A program made the position numbers and the translations under genes. From Erysipelothrix sp. HDW6A (GTDB lineage: Bacteria; Bacillota_I; Bacilli_A; Erysipelotrichales; Erysipelotrichaceae), in the NCBI RefSeq assembly GCF_011400295.1, contig NZ_CP049859.1, positions 1,550,001 through 1,614,000 of the forward strand: 64,000 nt of DNA. Reading direction: 5' to 3'. Shown here piece after piece: positions 39,881 to 51,053 of the stretch (positions within the stretch are counted from its first letter, which is position 1; each line of letters begins with the position of its first letter). Under the pieces are notes generated by a model. The model did not search any database. It saw only the letters and a list, made by a program, of their open reading frames with translations, and was not told the origin of the DNA.

Positions 39881-39995
39881 TACCTGGCAATGAGCTATCT
39901 TCACTAGAGCGTGCCTAGCTATTGTCGCCGCTAAAGTGCTTAACTTCTGTGTTCGGGATGGGAACAGGTGTGACCACTTCGCAACTATCACCAGA
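39881..39995 (-). rRNA. rrf: 5S ribosomal RNA
   Basis: About 115 bases with the conserved 5S core on the minus strand (CACCTGTTCCCATCCCGAAC, then GAAGTTAAGC). The ends CTGGTGATAG and GCCAGGTAA are complementary and make helix I. Last gene of the operon. Confidence 0.9.
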
Positions 39996-40025
39996 TCAAT
40001 TGCTTTTACTGAGAGATAATCTCTC

Positions 40026-43173
<3,148 letters not shown>

Positions 43174-43218
43174 CAAAGATCATTCATTTCTTCTGAGATT
43201 CTTATTAAAAAGCCTCTC

Positions 43219-44889
<1,671 letters not shown>

Positions 44890-45037: not shown

Positions 45038-45078
45038 AAAAAAAGAAACACTATAACTTCTAATAAATTATAGTGTTT
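45038..45078 (-). terminator. Intrinsic terminator of the aromatic amino acid ABC operon
   Basis: Perfect 11-bp stem AAACACTATAA/TTATAGTGTTT followed on the minus strand by a T-run. It overlaps the stop codon of the ATPase gene. Confidence 0.9.
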
Positions 45079-45850
45079 CGACAAAAGAATTCTCATATTC
45101 CATAAACATATTAATTAACTGGTCTCTATTAAGCCGTTGTTTTTCTTCACCTTTAATATCATGGATGATTTTACCTTCATGAAACATCAACAATCTGCTT
45201 CCATATTCCAAGGCATGGTTTAGATTATGAGTTACCATAACAGATGTAATGTTTTTCTCTTTTATCATCTTATCTGTTAAGGCCATAATTGCCTCCGAAC
45301 TTTTAGGATCAAGAGCAGCAGTATGTTCATCCAAAAGAAGTACATCTGGATTATTCATGAGTGCCATTAATAAGGATAGAGCTTGACGCTGTCCACCAGA
45401 CAATTGTGCAACCTTTACATCCAGTTTATCTTCTAAGTTCATATCTAAAGTTTTCAATAGTTCTATGAAATGTTTTCTCTCATCTTGAGTAGATAATTTT
45501 CTTAGCGTGAAAAGCTTCCCTTTACCTGAAGCTAGCGATAAGTTTTCGATCACAGTTAAGGAAGGAGATGTTCCTGCAAGAGGGTCTTGGTAAACGCGTG
45601 AGATTCGTTTGAATCGTTGAAATCCTTTAATCTTCAACAAATTTTGTTTATCAAACTCAATGAAGCCATCATCAGGTTTAAGTTGACCACAAATTAAATT
45701 AAGCAATGTTGACTTGCCAGATCCATTGGACCCAATGATAGTAACAAACTCTCCTTTTTCTATTTCTAAGTTTAAATCATTATATAAGGAAGACTCTGCA
45801 CTCGTTCCACCATTAAATGTCTTATCTATATTCTTTAATGTTAACATCAT
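45068..45850 (-). CDS. ABC transporter ATP-binding protein, aromatic amino acid-type importer
   Basis: A 260-residue ATPase. Walker A IIGSNGSGKSTLLN, Q-loop SRVYQDPLAGTSPSLTVIEN, signature QLSGGQRQALSLLMAL, Walker B VLLLDEHTAALDPKSSEAI, switch MVTHNLNHALEYG. The DEHTAALDPK form is typical of the ATPase that partners LivH-like permeases and ABC_sub_bind proteins (TrpXYZ-type systems of streptococci). Last gene of the operon with a 4-base overlap to the permease gene. Confidence 0.85.
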   Translation of the reverse strand: MMLTLKNIDKTFNGGTSAESSLYNDLNLEIEKGEFVTIIGSNGSGKSTLLNLICGQLKPDDGFIEFDKQNLLKIKGFQRFKRISRVYQDPLAGTSPSLTVIENLSLASGKGKLFTLRKLSTQDERKHFIELLKTLDMNLEDKLDVKVAQLSGGQRQALSLLMALMNNPDVLLLDEHTAALDPKSSEAIMALTDKMIKEKNITSVMVTHNLNHALEYGSRLLMFHEGKIIHDIKGEEKQRLNRDQLINMFMEYENSFVETL

Positions 45851-46743
45851 AATATTTCTCCCATCCCAATCTTCTTCGCAACTTTACTTTTATTTAACAC
45901 AATAGCTACTACAAAGATAATGACTGTCGCAAGATTTAAATGTTGCGGATTCATGTTTAATTCTAATGCAATCGCAATAATTAATCGGTAAACAATTGAA
46001 CCCAGAATAACCATTGTCGTTTGTTTAATCTTTAATTTTCCAAATAATGTTGTACCTAGGATTACTGAGGACAATCCAAGAACCACCATTCCAGTACCTA
46101 AGCTAATATCAAATGTTCTTCCAACCGAAGCAGCAATACCACCACTGAATGCAACAATACCATTCGCAATTGCTAATCCGAAGATTTTCACTGTCCCGAC
46201 ATCATGACCCAAGGTTGTAACTAAACCCTCATTATCACCTGTTACTTTTAATAAATATCCAAATCTTGTTTTAAGAAGTAAATCAATTATGACCTTAACT
46301 ATCATTGTTAAGATGAATAGCACAATAATTTGGTAGTATTTCAAAACGAAGTCAGGCAAATTTAATCCACTTAAGTTCTTAGTAACAAATAAAGTGTTAT
46401 GAGCAAAGAGCGGAACATTAGAGCTCCCTGCAACCATTAGATTAATAGAGTATAATCCAGTCATTACGAGTATCCCACTTAATAAGGAACTGATTCCTAA
46501 TTTAACATGTAATAAACCAGTAATTGAACCAGCTATTAACCCTGCTATTAAAGAAGCAAGTAAAGCAATCCAAGGGTTAACTCCATTAACTATTAAGATA
46601 GCACTGACAGCAACCCCTAATGGAAAGGTACCATCAACACTCAAATCAGGAATATCTAAGATTCTATAGGAAATCATGACTCCCATTGACAAAATACCAT
46701 ACAGTAAGCCTTGAACACCTACACTTATAATGAAATCTAACAT
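45847..46743 (-). CDS. ABC transporter permease, LivH/TrpY-like
   Basis: A 298-residue protein with about eight to nine spans. It starts SVGVQGLLYGILSMGVMISY RILDIPDLSVDGTFPLG, the signature of the BPD_transp_2 permeases that go with ABC_sub_bind proteins. Later segments include VKLGISSLLSGILVMTGLYS and SLGTGMVVLGLSSVILGTTL FG. It begins one base after the binding-protein gene. It should carry the amino acid delivered by either of the two binding proteins encoded here. Confidence 0.85.
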   Translation of the reverse strand: MLDFIISVGVQGLLYGILSMGVMISYRILDIPDLSVDGTFPLGVAVSAILIVNGVNPWIALLASLIAGLIAGSITGLLHVKLGISSLLSGILVMTGLYSINLMVAGSSNVPLFAHNTLFVTKNLSGLNLPDFVLKYYQIIVLFILTMIVKVIIDLLLKTRFGYLLKVTGDNEGLVTTLGHDVGTVKIFGLAIANGIVAFSGGIAASVGRTFDISLGTGMVVLGLSSVILGTTLFGKLKIKQTTMVILGSIVYRLIIAIALELNMNPQHLNLATVIIFVVAIVLNKSKVAKKIGMGEIL

Positions 46744-46744
46744 A

Positions 46745-47710
46745 CTATCGAATCTCTGCTCTTTCTAATAATTCTTTTGGAATTTGAATTCCAAGTTCAT
46801 CCGCCATTTTCTGGCTGATAATTAATTCAGTCTCTTGAGCAGTTTGAACCGGAATTGACTGAATCGGTTTTTTATCCACCAATATTTCTTTAATCATAAT
46901 CCCTGCTTGAATACCAAGTGATTTGTAACTAATAGAATCAGTTGCAAGGATTCCTTGATCGAATTGTCCGGATTCCGCCATAAACACTGGGACTTTAAGC
47001 TCACTTGCTTGGTTTACTACTAATCCAGCTTGTGAAGCAATGGTGTTATCAGGAATTATGTAGATGGCATCAACTGATTTAGTTATCTGAGCTGCTGCAA
47101 TCGCAAGTTCACTCGGCTTACTAATACCTTGGGTAACTATTTCAATTCCTAAAGGACTCGCTATTTTCTTCACTTCTTCAATTTGGCTTGTACTATTTGC
47201 TTCACTAGTATTAAAAAGGATTCCAAGCTTCTTCATTTCAGGAAACATTGTTTTCATCAGTTCTAGTTGTTTCTTAACTGGCGGAAGATCGCTAACTCCA
47301 GTGATTGCCCCTTCAGGACTGTCAATATTTTCTACAAGACCCGCTGCCTTTGCATCCGTCACTGCACTAAACACTACAGGTATGTTCGTATTTTCAACAG
47401 CAACTAGTGCAGTCTGTGCAGCAGGTGTTGCGATTGTAAAGATTAGATCAACTCCTTGACTAACAAACTGGGAAGCAGCCATTGTAGCAGTACTAGCATC
47501 TTCATTAACCACTTTGATTTGCACATTTGCATTTTCCAATCCCGCTTGCTTTAATCCTTCCATCATTCCTTCTAAAGAATCATTTAATGCAGGATGCTGC
47601 GCCCACTGTAACACTCCAATTGTAATTTCGTCTTTATTTTTCTTTGAACAACCAGCCAGTAATAACAAACTGACAAATAATACAACACTAATTTTCTTCA
47701 TTCTCTTCAT
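46745..47710 (-). CDS. ABC_sub_bind lipoprotein, predicted tyrosine/aromatic binding
   Basis: About 321 residues from the ATG at 47710, with AAGGAGAG upstream. Lipobox LLLAGCSKK. The mature protein is PF04392-type: ITIGVLQWAQHPALNDSLEG, VNEDASTATMAASQFVSQGV DLIF, VVFSAVTDAKAAGLVENID, ITGVSDLPPVKKQLELMKTM and PVFMAESGQFDQGILATDS. It is about 40% similar by eye to the other binding protein. The leader peptide in front ends Trp-Ser-Phe-Tyr-Tyr-Tyr-Phe-Ser, which points to tyrosine or aromatic amino acids as the regulated ligand. The ligand itself is inference. Confidence 0.8.
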   Translation of the reverse strand: MKRMKKISVVLFVSLLLLAGCSKKNKDEITIGVLQWAQHPALNDSLEGMMEGLKQAGLENANVQIKVVNEDASTATMAASQFVSQGVDLIFTIATPAAQTALVAVENTNIPVVFSAVTDAKAAGLVENIDSPEGAITGVSDLPPVKKQLELMKTMFPEMKKLGILFNTSEANSTSQIEEVKKIASPLGIEIVTQGISKPSELAIAAAQITKSVDAIYIIPDNTIASQAGLVVNQASELKVPVFMAESGQFDQGILATDSISYKSLGIQAGIMIKEILVDKKPIQSIPVQTAQETELIISQKMADELGIQIPKELLERAEIR

Positions 47711-47738: not shown

Positions 47739-47762
47739 AAAAAAGCCGTTTCTACACGGCTT
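47739..47762 (-). terminator. Attenuator terminator of the tyrosine-type leader
   Basis: On the minus strand AAGCCGT/ACGGCTT stem followed by TTTTTT, 29 bases before the binding-protein start codon. It lies downstream of the leader peptide gene and upstream of the structural genes. Confidence 0.85.
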
Positions 47763-47830
47763 CATCATAATCATTGAATAACTAAGAAGAATTTTGTATG
47801 GAGCCTGTAGATACTTTAGCAAACACAAAA

Positions 47831-47856
47831 GGTTAATATCCACGAGGCTATTAACC
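47831..47856 (-). promoter_or_regulatory. Leader hairpin directly after the tyrosine-type leader stop
   Basis: GGTTAAT/ATTAACC stem, 12-base loop containing AGCCT (47845-47849). The loop can pair with AGGCT (47802-47806) downstream. The hairpin starts two bases after the leader stop codon, so a ribosome sitting on the stop would cover it. Same size and position as in the phenylalanine leader. Confidence 0.75.
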
Positions 47857-47858
47857 GA

Positions 47859-47924
47859 TTAACTAAAGTAATAATAGAAGCTCCATTGTTGGGCTTGAGA
47901 TGTAATAATATTGGTATTAATCAT
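47859..47924 (-). CDS. Leader peptide rich in aromatic residues (21 aa)
   Basis: ATG preceded by AGAAAGGTTGGG. The 21-residue peptide starts MINTNIITSQAQQ and ends WSFYYYFS, with three tandem Tyr codons plus Trp and two Phe. The position between promoter and terminator is that of an attenuation leader such as trpL or pheL. It would sense charged tRNA-Tyr (possibly also Trp and Phe). Confidence 0.8.
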   Translation of the reverse strand: MINTNIITSQAQQWSFYYYFS

Positions 47925-47977: not shown

Positions 47978-48045
47978 GCAAATGTAATAAATTTGTATAT
48001 TTTCATTATTCAATCAATCAAAAGCACTAAACTATTCACCGCTTA

Positions 48046-49005
48046 CTATTGATTTGAAATTCTTGATAGTGTTTCTTTACTTAATTCTATACCTAAATCT
48101 TTTGCCTGGTCTTTATTGATAAATAATTCTGTCTCTTCTGAAACTACGACTGGTATCTCTTGAGCTTTCTTAGTACCACGTAATATATCATAAACAATAT
48201 CTCCACCACGTCTACCAAGTTTTAGATAGCTGAGTGACTCTGTTGCTAAGATCCCCTCATCAAAAGCACCATCTTCTGAAGCAAACACAGGAATTCTTGC
48301 CTCATTAGCAACATCTACAATCGTTGAAGTGGCAGATACAACCATGTTGTCAGTCGTGTTATAGAACGCATCAACTTTTGAAGCCAATTGTTTTGCAGCT
48401 AGCGGTAAATCTTGCATCGTCGCTACTCCTTGAGAAAGTATCTCAATACCCATTTCTTCTGCTATAGGGACTAGCGTTTCTATTTGTACCTTAGAGTTAA
48501 CCTCTGCAATGTTGTAAACAATACCCACTCGTTTAACCTCTGGTAGCAATTCTTTAACAAGTTGAAACTGCTTCTTAGCAGGTGATATATCACTTACCCC
48601 TGTAATTCTTTCTCCAGGTTTATCGTTTGACTCAACTAGTCCTGCTGCAACAGGATCAGTAACTGCATTAAATACCACAACTGTGTCAGTTCCTTCTGTC
48701 ACATTATAGGCAGTCTGAGCAGCATTCGTTCCAATCGCATATATAATATCTACTTTATCCTTTACAAACTGTTCAGCTATCAACTGCACATTTGTCATAT
48801 TCCCTTGGGCATTCTTTAGATTCACATCATAGTTATCTTTTCCAAGTTTCTCATCAAGAACATCAATCATCCCTTGATATGTCGCGTCAAGAGATTTATG
48901 TTCAGCTAGTTGAAGAACTCCAATTGTAGGTTTCTCTCCACTTTTCTCTGAACACCCTGTCAATACTAGCATTACCATTAAAAGCGTTACAATGATTTTT
49001 TTCAT
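48046..49005 (-). CDS. ABC_sub_bind lipoprotein, predicted phenylalanine binding
   Basis: A 319-residue lipoprotein; lipobox VLTGCSEKS, AGGAGGAAA before the ATG. PF04392 pattern: PTIGVLQLAEHKSLDATYQG, GNMTNVQLIAEQFVKDKVDI IYAIGTNAAQTAY, VVFNAVTDPVAAGLVESNDK, RITGVSDISPAKKQFQLVKE and PVFASEDGAFDEGILATESL. It is a paralogue of the next binding protein but has no permease or ATPase of its own. It probably delivers to the permease encoded downstream. Its leader peptide carries five consecutive Phe codons. Confidence 0.8.
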   Translation of the reverse strand: MKKIIVTLLMVMLVLTGCSEKSGEKPTIGVLQLAEHKSLDATYQGMIDVLDEKLGKDNYDVNLKNAQGNMTNVQLIAEQFVKDKVDIIYAIGTNAAQTAYNVTEGTDTVVVFNAVTDPVAAGLVESNDKPGERITGVSDISPAKKQFQLVKELLPEVKRVGIVYNIAEVNSKVQIETLVPIAEEMGIEILSQGVATMQDLPLAAKQLASKVDAFYNTTDNMVVSATSTIVDVANEARIPVFASEDGAFDEGILATESLSYLKLGRRGGDIVYDILRGTKKAQEIPVVVSEETELFINKDQAKDLGIELSKETLSRISNQ

Positions 49006-49024
49006 AGTTTCCTCCTATTCAAGT

Positions 49025-49053
49025 AAAAAAGCCATGTATACAACATGGCTTTA
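49025..49053 (-). terminator. Attenuator terminator of the phenylalanine leader
   Basis: On the minus strand AGCCATG/CATGGCT with flanking A-T pairs, followed by TTTTTT. Its 5' arm can instead pair with ACATGGCT (49070-49077), an exact 8-base complement, to form an antiterminator. Confidence 0.9.
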
Positions 49054-49095
49054 AAATGAATACTTAAGGAGCCATGTCGATTTCCATTGGAAAAT

Positions 49096-49121
49096 GGTTA
49101 ATCTCGATGGCGAAATTAACC
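49096..49121 (-). promoter_or_regulatory. Leader hairpin directly after the phenylalanine leader stop
   Basis: GGTTAAT/ATTAACC stem with a 12-base loop containing GCCAT (49107-49111). GCCAT can pair with ATGGC inside the antiterminator segment (49070-49077). The hairpin begins two bases after the leader stop. Confidence 0.75.
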
Positions 49122-49123
49122 GT

Positions 49124-49180
49124 TTAACTAAAGAAAAAGAAAAAGCTCTTACTTGCTTGTAAATTGTGAATTGTCGACAT
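49124..49180 (-). CDS. Phenylalanine leader peptide (18 aa)
   Basis: ATG preceded by AGAAAGGTCGGGG. The peptide begins MSTIHNLQAS and ends KSFFFFFS. The five Phe codons alternate TTT and TTC. The layout (promoter, leader peptide, alternative hairpins, terminator, structural gene) is that of ribosome-mediated attenuation. Function is inferred from sequence. Confidence 0.85.
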   Translation of the reverse strand: MSTIHNLQASKSFFFFFS

Positions 49181-49203
49181 TGTACCCCGACCTTTCTAAA
49201 TCC

Positions 49204-49232
49204 ATAGTATCAAAGGACAAAACAAATTACAA
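49204..49232 (-). promoter_or_regulatory. Promoter of the phenylalanine leader transcript
   Basis: On the minus strand TTGTAA (49227-49232), 17-bp spacer, TACTAT (49204-49209). Confidence 0.65.
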
Positions 49233-49307
49233 TATCTTTCTGAAAAACAATGAAAATAAATGTTGTTGTGATATAATTGTTTCATAAATTAAAGGAGAAT
49301 ATAAAAT

Positions 49308-51053
49308 ATGTACACATGGTCACTCGATGCACTTTATCCTGCATACAACGAAAAATTTGACAGTGATATTAATGAGCTAAAAAAGATTATTAGAACTATG
49401 GACTCATTATCACAGAATTTAGAAACTCAAGCTGATTTAGTAAAATGGCTTGAGACCGAAGAAGCTTTCTACACTCTAGCTATGTCTCTATCTAGCTATA
49501 TTTCATTAAACTTATCTACTGATGCTACAGATGCTGTAACAAATCAAAAGCTTGGTATCCTACAACCAATCATGAGTAGTACAGCTAAACCTTACGCTCG
49601 ATTCAAGACATTCTTAAGCAAACACCGTGACGAATTCCCTATTTGGGTTAATAGCAACGATAAAATTAAAGAATATGAATTCATGCTTCAAGAAATTATT
49701 GATCAAAGTTCCTATAACTTAAGTGACGATGCTGAAGAAGTTGTATCAAAAATGAAAATTAACGCTTCCAATAACTGGAGTCAACTTCAAACTTACTTAA
49801 CAGCTATGACAACCATTGAATTGAATGGAGAAACACAAACACTTTCTTCAATTCGTAACTTAGCATATGATAGCGATCAAACCGTTCGAAAAGCTGCTTA
49901 TGAAAAAGAACTAGAGCTCTACAAACCAATCGAAGAGAGTGTAGCATTTGCACTCAACAGTATTAAGGGAGAAGTGAACACACTTTCCGAACTTCGAGGA
50001 TATAGCTCTCCATTAGAACAAACCCTCATAAACTCTCGATTAAGCCAAGAGACATTAGATGCATTGATTGCTGCAATTGAGGAGTATTTACCAACATTTA
50101 GAAAGTTCTTTAAACATAAGGCTAAACTATTAGGACATAAAGATTCCCTTCCTTGGTATGATCTTTTCGCACCATTTGAAACATCGAATCCAAAAACATA
50201 CACCATCGAAGAATCAAAAGAGATGATCGTTTCTAGTTTCGCTGATTTCTCCGATGACTTGAGTGAAATGACACGTACTGCTTACGAGAATAAGTGGATT
50301 GACTTCTTACCTAAAGAAGGTAAATCTGGTGGAGCATTCTGTAGTAATCAACCACAGATTAAACAAAGTTATATCTTAACAAATTTTGGAGGAAGTATTT
50401 CTGATATTATCACGCTTGCTCACGAATTGGGTCATGCTTATCACGGATACATGATTGAAGACCTTGCAATTCTGAATACCGATTATACAATGCCTGTAGC
50501 TGAGACTGCATCGACATTCTGCGAAAACATTGTGTTGAATGCTGCTCTTAAAACAGTTAGCGATGAAGAAAAGATTGTACTCATCGAAAACTCAATCAGT
50601 GATTTAGCTCAAATAACTGTCGATATTCTTTCCCGTTACAAATTTGAAACGGAAGTATTCAAACGCAGAAAAGAAGAGTTCCTCTTTGCTAAAGATTTAA
50701 AAGAAATTATGTTGCAAGCACAAAGGGATACCTATGGAGATGGACTTGATGAAAATGCTATGCATCCATACATGTGGATCAATAAAGGACACTACTATAG
50801 TGGTGAACTTAGCTTCTATAACTTCCCTTATGCCTTTGGGGGGCTCTTCGCATTAGGTCTTTACCACCAATTTGAAGAAGAAGGAAAAGACTTTGTTCCA
50901 AAATACCAAGCACTTCTCAAAGCTACACCAACTGCAAGTTGTGAAGACGTTGCGAAAATGGCAGACATTGATGTCACAGATATTAACTTCTGGAAATCTA
51001 GTCTTGACGTTGTTGCTAAGCGTATCGATGATTTTATCGAATTAACAAAATAA
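49308..51053 (+). CDS. pepF: Oligoendopeptidase F
   Basis: A 581-residue M3B peptidase with AAAGGAG before the ATG. The zinc site is ITLAHELGHAYHGYMIEDL (HELGH), with the third ligand Glu in PVAETASTFCENIVLNA. The N-terminal helical half and the C-terminal YAFGGLFALGLYHQFEEEGK are typical of PepF. It cleaves short peptides inside the cell and may recycle signal or imported peptides. Monocistronic; divergent from the phenylalanine leader transcript. Confidence 0.9.
   Translation: MYTWSLDALYPAYNEKFDSDINELKKIIRTMDSLSQNLETQADLVKWLETEEAFYTLAMSLSSYISLNLSTDATDAVTNQKLGILQPIMSSTAKPYARFKTFLSKHRDEFPIWVNSNDKIKEYEFMLQEIIDQSSYNLSDDAEEVVSKMKINASNNWSQLQTYLTAMTTIELNGETQTLSSIRNLAYDSDQTVRKAAYEKELELYKPIEESVAFALNSIKGEVNTLSELRGYSSPLEQTLINSRLSQETLDALIAAIEEYLPTFRKFFKHKAKLLGHKDSLPWYDLFAPFETSNPKTYTIEESKEMIVSSFADFSDDLSEMTRTAYENKWIDFLPKEGKSGGAFCSNQPQIKQSYILTNFGGSISDIITLAHELGHAYHGYMIEDLAILNTDYTMPVAETASTFCENIVLNAALKTVSDEEKIVLIENSISDLAQITVDILSRYKFETEVFKRRKEEFLFAKDLKEIMLQAQRDTYGDGLDENAMHPYMWINKGHYYSGELSFYNFPYAFGGLFALGLYHQFEEEGKDFVPKYQALLKATPTASCEDVAKMADIDVTDINFWKSSLDVVAKRIDDFIELTK

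What the first reader, a model, noticed from the sequence alone, without database searches (positions are those of the whole stretch)
49025..49232. Phenylalanine leader peptide with attenuator in front of an ABC_sub_bind lipoprotein gene
Seen: promoter, an 18-codon ORF ending KSFFFFFS (five tandem Phe codons), a stop, a hairpin two bases later, and an intrinsic terminator before the gene. The terminator's 5' arm (AGCCATGT) has an exact alternative partner (ACATGGCT, 49070-49077). Ribosome-mediated attenuation is classical in proteobacteria but rare in Bacillota, where T-boxes usually regulate amino acid genes. I know of no description of a Phe-rich leader controlling this transporter family.
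Basis: partly seen in the sequence, partly recalled or inferred. Interest (0 to 1): 0.9.

Follow-up and report, generated by a model that had tools for sequence, protein, structure and literature searches.

The report
Phenylalanine leader peptide controlling amino-acid importer
Upstream of an amino-acid importer gene in an Erysipelothrix bacterium lies a tiny gene packed with phenylalanine codons that probably lets the ribosome itself measure phenylalanine supply and switch the importer on; the neighbouring importer gene has a tyrosine version, and related importer genes in other bacteria of the order carry a different RNA sensor (the T-box) for the same amino acids.

Summary
An 18-codon ORF (MSTIHNLQASKSFFFFFS*) precedes a post-stop hairpin and a terminator whose 5' arm has an exact alternative partner, upstream of an ABC_sub_bind lipoprotein gene. 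Of 13 Erysipelothrix genomes, 11 have a Phe-rich leader at this gene and 12 a homologous Tyr-rich leader at its tandem paralogue (window 47859-47924); at least 5 have a third leader with one Trp codon. Pooled over 24 Phe/Tyr leaders, the antiterminator (3 of 240 shuffles as good) and an anti-antiterminator (31 of 2400) exceed chance. Homologous genes of the same family or order often carry T-boxes whose specifier reads UUC, UAC or UGG. The window's genome has 12 T-box matches, one before pheS, none here. Best reading: ribosome-mediated transcription attenuation of aromatic amino-acid import, with separate Phe and Tyr sensors. Leader peptides standing in for T-boxes in Bacillota are published for histidine genes, also in this order, so the kind is known; the aromatic set on TrpXYZ-type importers was not found in my searches. 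No expression data exist: sensing of tRNA charging is inferred, and my folding simulation of the switch was inconclusive.

The parts
49124..49180 (-). Phe leader peptide ORF, MSTIHNLQASKSFFFFFS*, Phe codons 49130-49144, stop 49124-49126
   Evidence: Phe-rich leader at the corresponding gene in 11 of 13 genus genomes
49191..49195 (-). Shine-Dalgarno-like AAAGG, 10 nt before the ATG; the GTCGG at its end can pair with TCGAC of codons 2-3
   Evidence: an AGG-containing stretch precedes the other leaders too, except G014; the pairing is hardly above shuffles (463 of 2400 as low)
49145..49148 (-). segment r1 (GAGC, ending in the Ser codon), alternative partner of segment c
   Evidence: 11 Phe leaders: 87% of cells paired, columns 51:137 occur as AU, CG, GC and UA, columns 50:138 unpaired in 6 of 11; weak singly
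49096..49121 (-). post-stop hairpin a:b (GGTTAATTTCGCCATCGAGATTAACC)
   Evidence: 100% of cells paired in 11 Phe leaders, though 5 of 8 pairs never vary; 5' arm starts 1-7 nt from the first base of the stop in 24 Phe/Tyr leaders, searched within 0-9 nt
49069..49085 (-). segment c (GGAAATCGACATGGCTC): can pair with b (OFF), with r1 (OFF) or with d (antiterminator, ON)
   Evidence: b:c 31 of 2400 shuffles as low; c:d 3 of 240
49028..49052 (-). intrinsic terminator d:e (AAAGCCATGT-TGTAT-ACATGGCTTT) with T run
48046..49005 (-). gene A: ABC_sub_bind (PF04392) lipoprotein, the controlled gene
   Evidence: E 1.9e-71; best PDB match 6hni, C. difficile CD0873
47859..47924 (-). Tyr-rich leader peptide ORF, MINTNIITSQAQQWSFYYYFS*
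   Evidence: Tyr-rich leader in 12 of 13 genus genomes; model R1 match at 47783-47897, but this sequence was in the model
47742..47763 (-). intrinsic terminator of the Tyr leader, before gene B
46745..47710 (-). gene B: second ABC_sub_bind lipoprotein
45847..46743 (-). permease (BPD_transp_2)
45068..45850 (-). ABC ATPase

Best explanation
A leader-peptide (ribosome-mediated) transcription attenuator senses the supply of charged tRNA-Phe and controls an aromatic amino-acid ABC importer. The short leader is translated as it is transcribed. When Phe-tRNA is short, the ribosome waits on the Phe codons; it covers r1 but not the hairpin just after the stop. So a:b forms, c stays free and takes d, the terminator cannot form, and the importer is transcribed. 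When Phe is plentiful the ribosome reaches the stop codon and covers arm a; b then takes c, d is left to e, and transcription ends. After release, or without translation, r1 can hold c, which also favours termination. The next gene has a homologous Tyr-rich leader, so the two binding proteins (Phe-type and Tyr-type, inferred) are switched separately while sharing permease and ATPase. Shown by sequence and comparison: the ORFs, the codons, the mutually exclusive pairings and their conservation. Inferred: translation, stalling, the ON/OFF assignment, the substrate of each binding protein. I hold leader-peptide attenuation at 0.85 and the detailed five-segment relay at about 0.6.
For: Phe-rich leader at gene A in 11 of 13 and Tyr-rich leader at gene B in 12 of 13 genus genomes. 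The rest of the peptide diverges while the aromatic run near the stop stays: SFFFFFS, SFFFFFT, SFFFIFRN, SFFFNFR, SSFFYFR, against WSYYYYFS, SFYYFYYYQ. c:d mean -14.1 against -6.9 kcal/mol in shuffles, 3 of 240 as low; b:c -16.3 against -8.8, 31 of 2400 as low, below the shuffle mean in 24 of 24 leaders. Pair counts in 11 Phe leaders: a:b 100%, b:c 95%, r1:c 87% of cells, with four pair types at one r1:c position. Hairpin 5' arm 1-7 nt from the first base of the stop in 24 leaders. T-boxes at homologous genes of the family or order read UUC (11 loci), UAC (2) or UGG (16 of the loci put in the table) at the specifier. Binding-protein clades follow leader class: Tyr 100/99, Trp 100/99, Phe 89/89. 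Solved relatives bind Tyr, Phe and Trp (PMC6816091, passages). E. rhusiopathiae, of the same genus, is reported to have complete pathways for seven amino acids, none aromatic (PMC9769512, passages).
Against: No expression, ribosome-profiling or binding data. The folding test of the switch is inconclusive: in 29 Phe/Tyr/mixed leaders c was less accessible with the ribosome at the stop than stalled (p 1e-4) but not in the released state (p 0.49), and the stop effect (0.105) was not clearly above that of shuffled controls (0.061, 24 leaders). In the window's own leader the predicted at-stop fold still pairs d upstream (0.77). r1:c is short: p<0.05 in 2 of 11 Phe, 5 of 14 Tyr, 5 of 5 Trp and 1 of 4 other leaders. 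Pocket residues do not separate the classes: Ser-Glu-Tyr in 8 and Ala-Glu-Tyr in 2 of 10 Phe-leader proteins, Ser/Thr-Glu-Tyr in 5 of 5 Trp-leader proteins, Ala-Glu-Tyr in 12 of 12 Tyr-leader and 5 of 5 mixed-leader proteins. UUC and UAC T-boxes do not sort by protein clade (L019 UUC and L020 UAC are near neighbours). The Trp class has one Trp codon and weak c:d pairing. Three Phe leaders have only three Phe codons (G002, G007, G010).
Confidence: 0.85

Rival explanations
1. The nascent peptide, not the codons, is the sensor: the ending S-F-F-F-F-F-[S/R/T]-stop holds the ribosome at the stop when free aromatic amino acid is bound, as in TnaC.
For: A final F-[S/R] before the stop recurs even in most Tyr leaders (WSYYYYFS). 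The hairpin lies where a ribosome at the stop would cover its 5' arm.
Against: The residues vary (FFFFF, FFYF, FFNF, FFIF, FYYFYYY) while aromatic codon content is kept; the Tyr leaders of G006, G009 and G011 lack the F-[S/R] ending. Leader codons and T-box specifiers of homologous genes name the same amino acids, which fits tRNA charging.
Confidence: 0.07
2. The leader senses general slowing of translation (for example by antibiotics) rather than Phe specifically.
For: A stall at the right place from any cause would do; such leaders exist in bacteria (PMC8632094, passages).
Against: Leader type matches the protein clade and the same amino acids appear as T-box specifiers at homologous genes; a general sensor needs no Phe/Tyr split.
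Confidence: 0.05
3. A plain terminator plus a chance ORF: no regulation by translation.
For: No experiment exists; terminators are common; the simulated switch is not above control.
Against: Kept ORF, codon run, stop position and pairings across the genus and in other genera.
Confidence: 0.03

Closest known systems
pheA/pheST, trp and his leader-peptide attenuators of Enterobacteria (recalled)
   Same: Short leader with a run of the regulatory codon, stop, competing hairpins, intrinsic terminator
   Different: Here the gene is an importer, and the chain has five segments (a:b, b:c, c:d, d:e) with the first hairpin right after the stop and an extra partner r1 inside the coding run; no direct comparison was made
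Listeria monocytogenes Rli60, PMC5864092 (passages read)
   Same: Ribosome-mediated attenuation in Bacillota, shown by experiment
   Different: Branched-chain codons, biosynthesis operon
His leader attenuators in bacilli and Erysipelotrichales, PMC2965389 and PMC9413887 (passages read)
   Same: Leader peptides standing where relatives have T-boxes; the second includes the same order of bacteria
   Different: His codons; his operon, hisS* or hisZ
uORFC-13-1 motif of Acholeplasma aroF, PMC8632094 (one section read)
   Same: uORF with at least one Phe codon before a terminator, aromatic pathway
   Different: Biosynthetic gene, at least one Phe rather than a run, different genus
Rfam RF01743 Leu/phe leader of Lactococcus lactis, PMC2864571 (one table row seen)
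   Same: By name a Leu/Phe leader in Bacillota
   Different: No match to it in the window or in 48000-49400 at E up to 10
TrpXYZ importer of Streptococcus suis with Trp T-box, PMC9382623 (passages read)
   Same: Same importer type, induced by amino-acid shortage through premature termination
   Different: Sensor there is a T-box with UGG; here a translated leader

Membership tests
Leader-peptide (ribosome-mediated) transcription attenuator | Short translatable ORF with ribosome-binding site | tested here: met
   18-aa ORF, AAAGG 10 nt before ATG; ORF kept in the genus. Translation itself was not tested
Leader-peptide (ribosome-mediated) transcription attenuator | Run of codons for the regulatory amino acid | tested here: met
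   FFFFF; Phe-rich in 11 of 13 genus genomes
Leader-peptide (ribosome-mediated) transcription attenuator | Mutually exclusive terminator and antiterminator | tested here: met
   c:d and d:e share arm d; 3 of 240 shuffles as good as c:d over 24 leaders; terminator
Leader-peptide (ribosome-mediated) transcription attenuator | Structure changes with ribosome position | tested here: inconclusive
   folding with a masked ribosome: effect 0.105 against 0.061 in controls
Leader-peptide (ribosome-mediated) transcription attenuator | Read-through depends on charging of the cognate tRNA | not testable with these tools
   needs experiment
T-box (RF00230) | Match to the T-box model upstream of the gene | tested here: not met
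   no match in the window at gathering score nor at E up to 10 in 48000-49400; the 12 matches of the genome lie elsewhere
Leu/phe leader (RF01743) | Match to the Rfam model | tested here: not met
ABC_sub_bind importer | PF04392 binding protein with BPD_transp_2 permease and ATPase | tested here: met
TrpX equivalog (NF041285) | Score above NCBI's cut-off of 390 bits | tested here: not met
   266.9 and 264.9 bits: relatives of TrpX, not TrpX by that rule
Tyr-binding protein like CD0873 | Ala262, Glu263, Tyr279 in the pocket | tested here: inconclusive
   gene B class has Ala-Glu-Tyr in 12 of 12 after one wrong ORF was dropped, but so do 2 of 10 Phe-leader and 5 of 5 mixed-leader proteins

The most novel reading that the evidence does not exclude
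In one bacterial family the ribosome-read leader and the T-box are interchangeable sensors for one importer family, and duplication of the binding protein went with a split of a mixed Phe/Tyr leader (as in genomes with one binding protein: YYFYFYFR, QFYFYFS, NYFYFIFC) into separate Phe-only and Tyr-rich leaders, each on its own paralogue, so that the amino acid each importer answers to is written in the codons before it.
Probability: 0.4. Interest if true: 0.75.

Novelty: new member of a known kind. Interest (0 to 1): 0.6.

Why it matters
It suggests a translated leader doing, with the same amino-acid specificities, the job that a T-box does before homologous genes of relatives, in a genome that still uses T-boxes elsewhere (including a UUC T-box before pheS). 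That makes the question of why and how RNA sensors are swapped testable within one importer family. The leader codons also predict the substrates of poorly annotated aromatic amino-acid binding proteins in a genus whose best-known species is reported to lack most amino-acid pathways.

Tried and rejected
Rejected: T-box and Rfam Leu/phe leader at this place; chance ORF. A thermodynamic simulation of ribosome positions was tried twice and did not clearly beat its shuffled control, so it is not used as support. Pocket residues were tried as an independent test of substrate and do not separate the classes. The Trp-class leaders (5 genomes) have strong r1:c pairing (5 of 5 with p<0.05) but weak c:d (-4.5 to -9.0 kcal/mol); their mechanism is left open.

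Rows dropped: G014_Y had no terminator by my rule and is missing from the folding and shuffle counts (24 of the 25 Phe/Tyr leaders used). Leaders of G002, G004 and G014 were left out of the model alignment A5 (20 of 25, plus L100-L103 = 24 rows). A wrong ORF for L092 was dropped from the tree (65 of 66 rows). Gene A of G007, which has a stop inside, was left out. The 60 upstream regions were my choice, not a random draw. Third PF04392 matches counted in G002 and G005 were not examined, so the number of Trp-class leaders is a lower bound. Leader starts were chosen by reading the printed sequences.

The CD0873-residue test was moved from met to inconclusive.

Full report
What is there. On the minus strand between a divergent M3 oligoendopeptidase gene (49308-51053) and an ABC_sub_bind lipoprotein gene (48046-49005) lie an AAAGG, an 18-codon ORF MSTIHNLQASKSFFFFFS* (49124-49180), a hairpin two bases after the stop (49096-49121), the word ACATGGCT (49070-49077) and a terminator (49028-49052) whose 5' arm AGCCATGT is its exact complement. 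The promoter is weak by consensus (8 of 12 by eye; not called at 9 of 12). FFFFF occurs in one of 739 ORF ends of the window and once in 60 shuffled windows together.

Operon. The gene is followed by a paralogue (46745-47710), a BPD_transp_2 permease and an ATPase, the layout of TrpXYZ importers. The best PDB match of both binding proteins is C. difficile CD0873, whose paper reports bound Tyr and notes Phe and Trp in the two other solved relatives (PMC6816091, passages). Upstream of the paralogue is a second leader, MINTNIITSQAQQWSFYYYFS* (47859-47924), with the same layout.

Relatives. The window lies in a 2.04 Mb single-contig genome, G000. I fetched the stretches upstream of the binding-protein matches that one search listed in the 13 genus genomes and picked the leaders by reading. 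11 of 13 have a Phe-rich leader (three to five Phe, at most one Tyr), 12 a Tyr-rich leader (two to five Tyr), and at least 5 a leader with a single Trp codon, WSN. G006 lacks gene A. G001, a fragmented assembly, has only a partial match to the protein family and no match to the leader model. The three leader classes sit on three protein groups (Tyr 100/99, Trp 100/99, Phe 89/89 support).

RNA pairing. In the Phe leaders (11 rows, alignment A2, with near-copies among them) the hairpin a:b pairs in 100% of cells, though 5 of 8 pairs never vary; b:c pairs in 95% (one pair with a change on both sides); r1:c pairs in 87%, with AU, CG, GC and UA all present at one position and another position unpaired in 6 of 11. 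Against dinucleotide shuffles over 24 Phe/Tyr leaders, c:d averages -14.1 against -6.9 kcal/mol with 3 of 240 shuffles as low; b:c -16.3 against -8.8 with 31 of 2400 (up to 7 of 100 in a single leader, G012_Y); r1:c is weaker, 296 of 2400, though below the shuffle mean in 24 of 24. The hairpin's 5' arm starts 1-7 nt from the first base of the stop in these 24 (searched within 0-9 nt; the 25th, G014, has only a poor hairpin). A ribosome on the stop would cover it and one on the aromatic codons would not (footprint size recalled). A pairing between the start region and early codons is seen by eye but hardly above chance (463 of 2400).

Model search. A covariance model from 24 leaders (R1) matched 13 of 40 genomes (own and relatives) with 24 hits, 23 of them in Erysipelothrix; 10 of 145 genomes of the family; 18 of 294 of the order, where the 29 listed hits all lie just before an ABC_sub_bind gene; and 2 of 295 in a phylum sample, the window's genome and G017. 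Six genomes outside g1 have one binding-protein gene and such a leader: G017, G153, G164, G126, G074 and G264; their leaders mix Phe and Tyr codons, G074 with mostly Tyr.

T-boxes at homologous genes. At gathering score T-boxes precede 11 of 17 loci and occur in 5 of 19, at E below 0.01, they occur in 18 of 20 loci (some loci repeat those of the earlier calls). Reading the specifier by recalled T-box anatomy gives UUC at 11 loci and UAC at 2 of the sister family f2, and UGG at 16 loci of both families (table). Peptoniphilus catoniae and Anaerosphaera aminiphila have tandem binding-protein genes with a UUC T-box before the first and a UAC T-box before the second. These proteins are homologues; the tree does not show them to be orthologues of the Erysipelothrix pair, and UUC and UAC T-boxes do not sort by protein clade. 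The window's genome has 12 T-box matches, 10 above the cut-off. Of the 11 ORFs downstream I scanned 10: serS, hisS, thrS, alaS, leuS, valS, pheS (with UUC), an amino-acid ABC transporter-like protein, an amidohydrolase, and one without a family. Among 60 further upstream regions in the family, chosen by me, 37 show a T-box word (13 of the 13 of these that I gave to Rfam were confirmed, where 20 of 60 were scanned) and 11 an aromatic leader by my reading (15 were flagged; L253, L267 and L291 overlap T-boxes, L287 lacks the layout; L263 is counted for the Tyr leader read). In genus g39 two genomes have paired FNFFFF and YYYYYY leaders with a shorter attenuator (L246-L249).

Mechanism. The best reading is ribosome-mediated attenuation: a stall on Phe codons gives a:b and c:d (read-through); a ribosome at the stop frees b to take c, so d:e terminates; without a ribosome r1 may hold c. 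Stalling and the amino acid sensed are inferred. My folding simulations do not show the switch convincingly, so the relay rests on conservation, not on energetics.

Against. Pocket residues do not separate the classes. Both proteins score below NCBI's TrpX cut-off. Three Phe leaders have only three Phe codons. The Trp class does not fit the same relay. A clean split of one mixed sensor into two is not shown: G006 and G014 have one binding-protein gene and a Tyr leader with at most one Phe near the stop, and Tyr leaders of G000, G003, G009 and G011 hold two Phe.

What is known. Leader peptides replacing T-boxes in Bacillota are described for his genes (PMC2965389 and PMC9413887, passages), the latter including six Erysipelotrichales species. 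Listeria Rli60 is shown by experiment (PMC5864092, passages), and a review reports branched-chain cases in several Bacillota (PMC6123439, passages). A Phe-containing uORF is proposed for Acholeplasma aroF (PMC8632094, section). The TrpXYZ importer is T-box controlled in S. suis (PMC9382623, passages). The search listings (one search showed 15 of 63 papers) named no paper on Phe or Tyr leaders for this importer family; the four papers with both Erysipelothrix and leader peptide were not opened for that, except PMC6123439. These searches cover open-licence PubMed Central papers only. The kind is known; the aromatic set is, as far as seen, new.

Noticed in passing
47742-47924 (-): Second, Tyr-rich leader and attenuator before the paralogous binding-protein gene, homologous to the Phe one.
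   Followed up: yes
L035, L037, L043, L055, L058: Third leader class, one Trp codon (..WSN..), before a third paralogue in five genus genomes; strong pairing of the coding stretch with a post-hairpin stretch but no clear antiterminator.
   Followed up: partly
L246-L249 (G101, G054, genus g39): Tandem binding-protein genes with FNFFFF and YYYYYY leaders and a much shorter attenuator (TTGGC / GCCAA before a GCC..GGC terminator): perhaps an independent origin.
   Followed up: no
L106, L108: Peptoniphilus and Anaerosphaera: tandem binding-protein genes carry UUC and UAC T-boxes.
   Followed up: partly
L198 (G000:C1:1381695-1381886): The window's genome keeps a UUC T-box before pheS, so it may read tRNA-Phe charging in two different ways.
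   Followed up: no
L086 (G007): The gene A counterpart of G007 has a stop inside its frame, yet its Phe leader (STFFNFR) is intact.
   Followed up: no
49181-49195 and first leader codons: The stretch at the Shine-Dalgarno can pair with early leader codons (GTTGG/CCAAC in relatives; GTCGG/TCGAC here), possibly limiting re-initiation; weak statistics.
   Followed up: partly
39882-44813 (-): An rRNA operon (5S, 23S, 16S) lies next to the importer operon.
   Followed up: no
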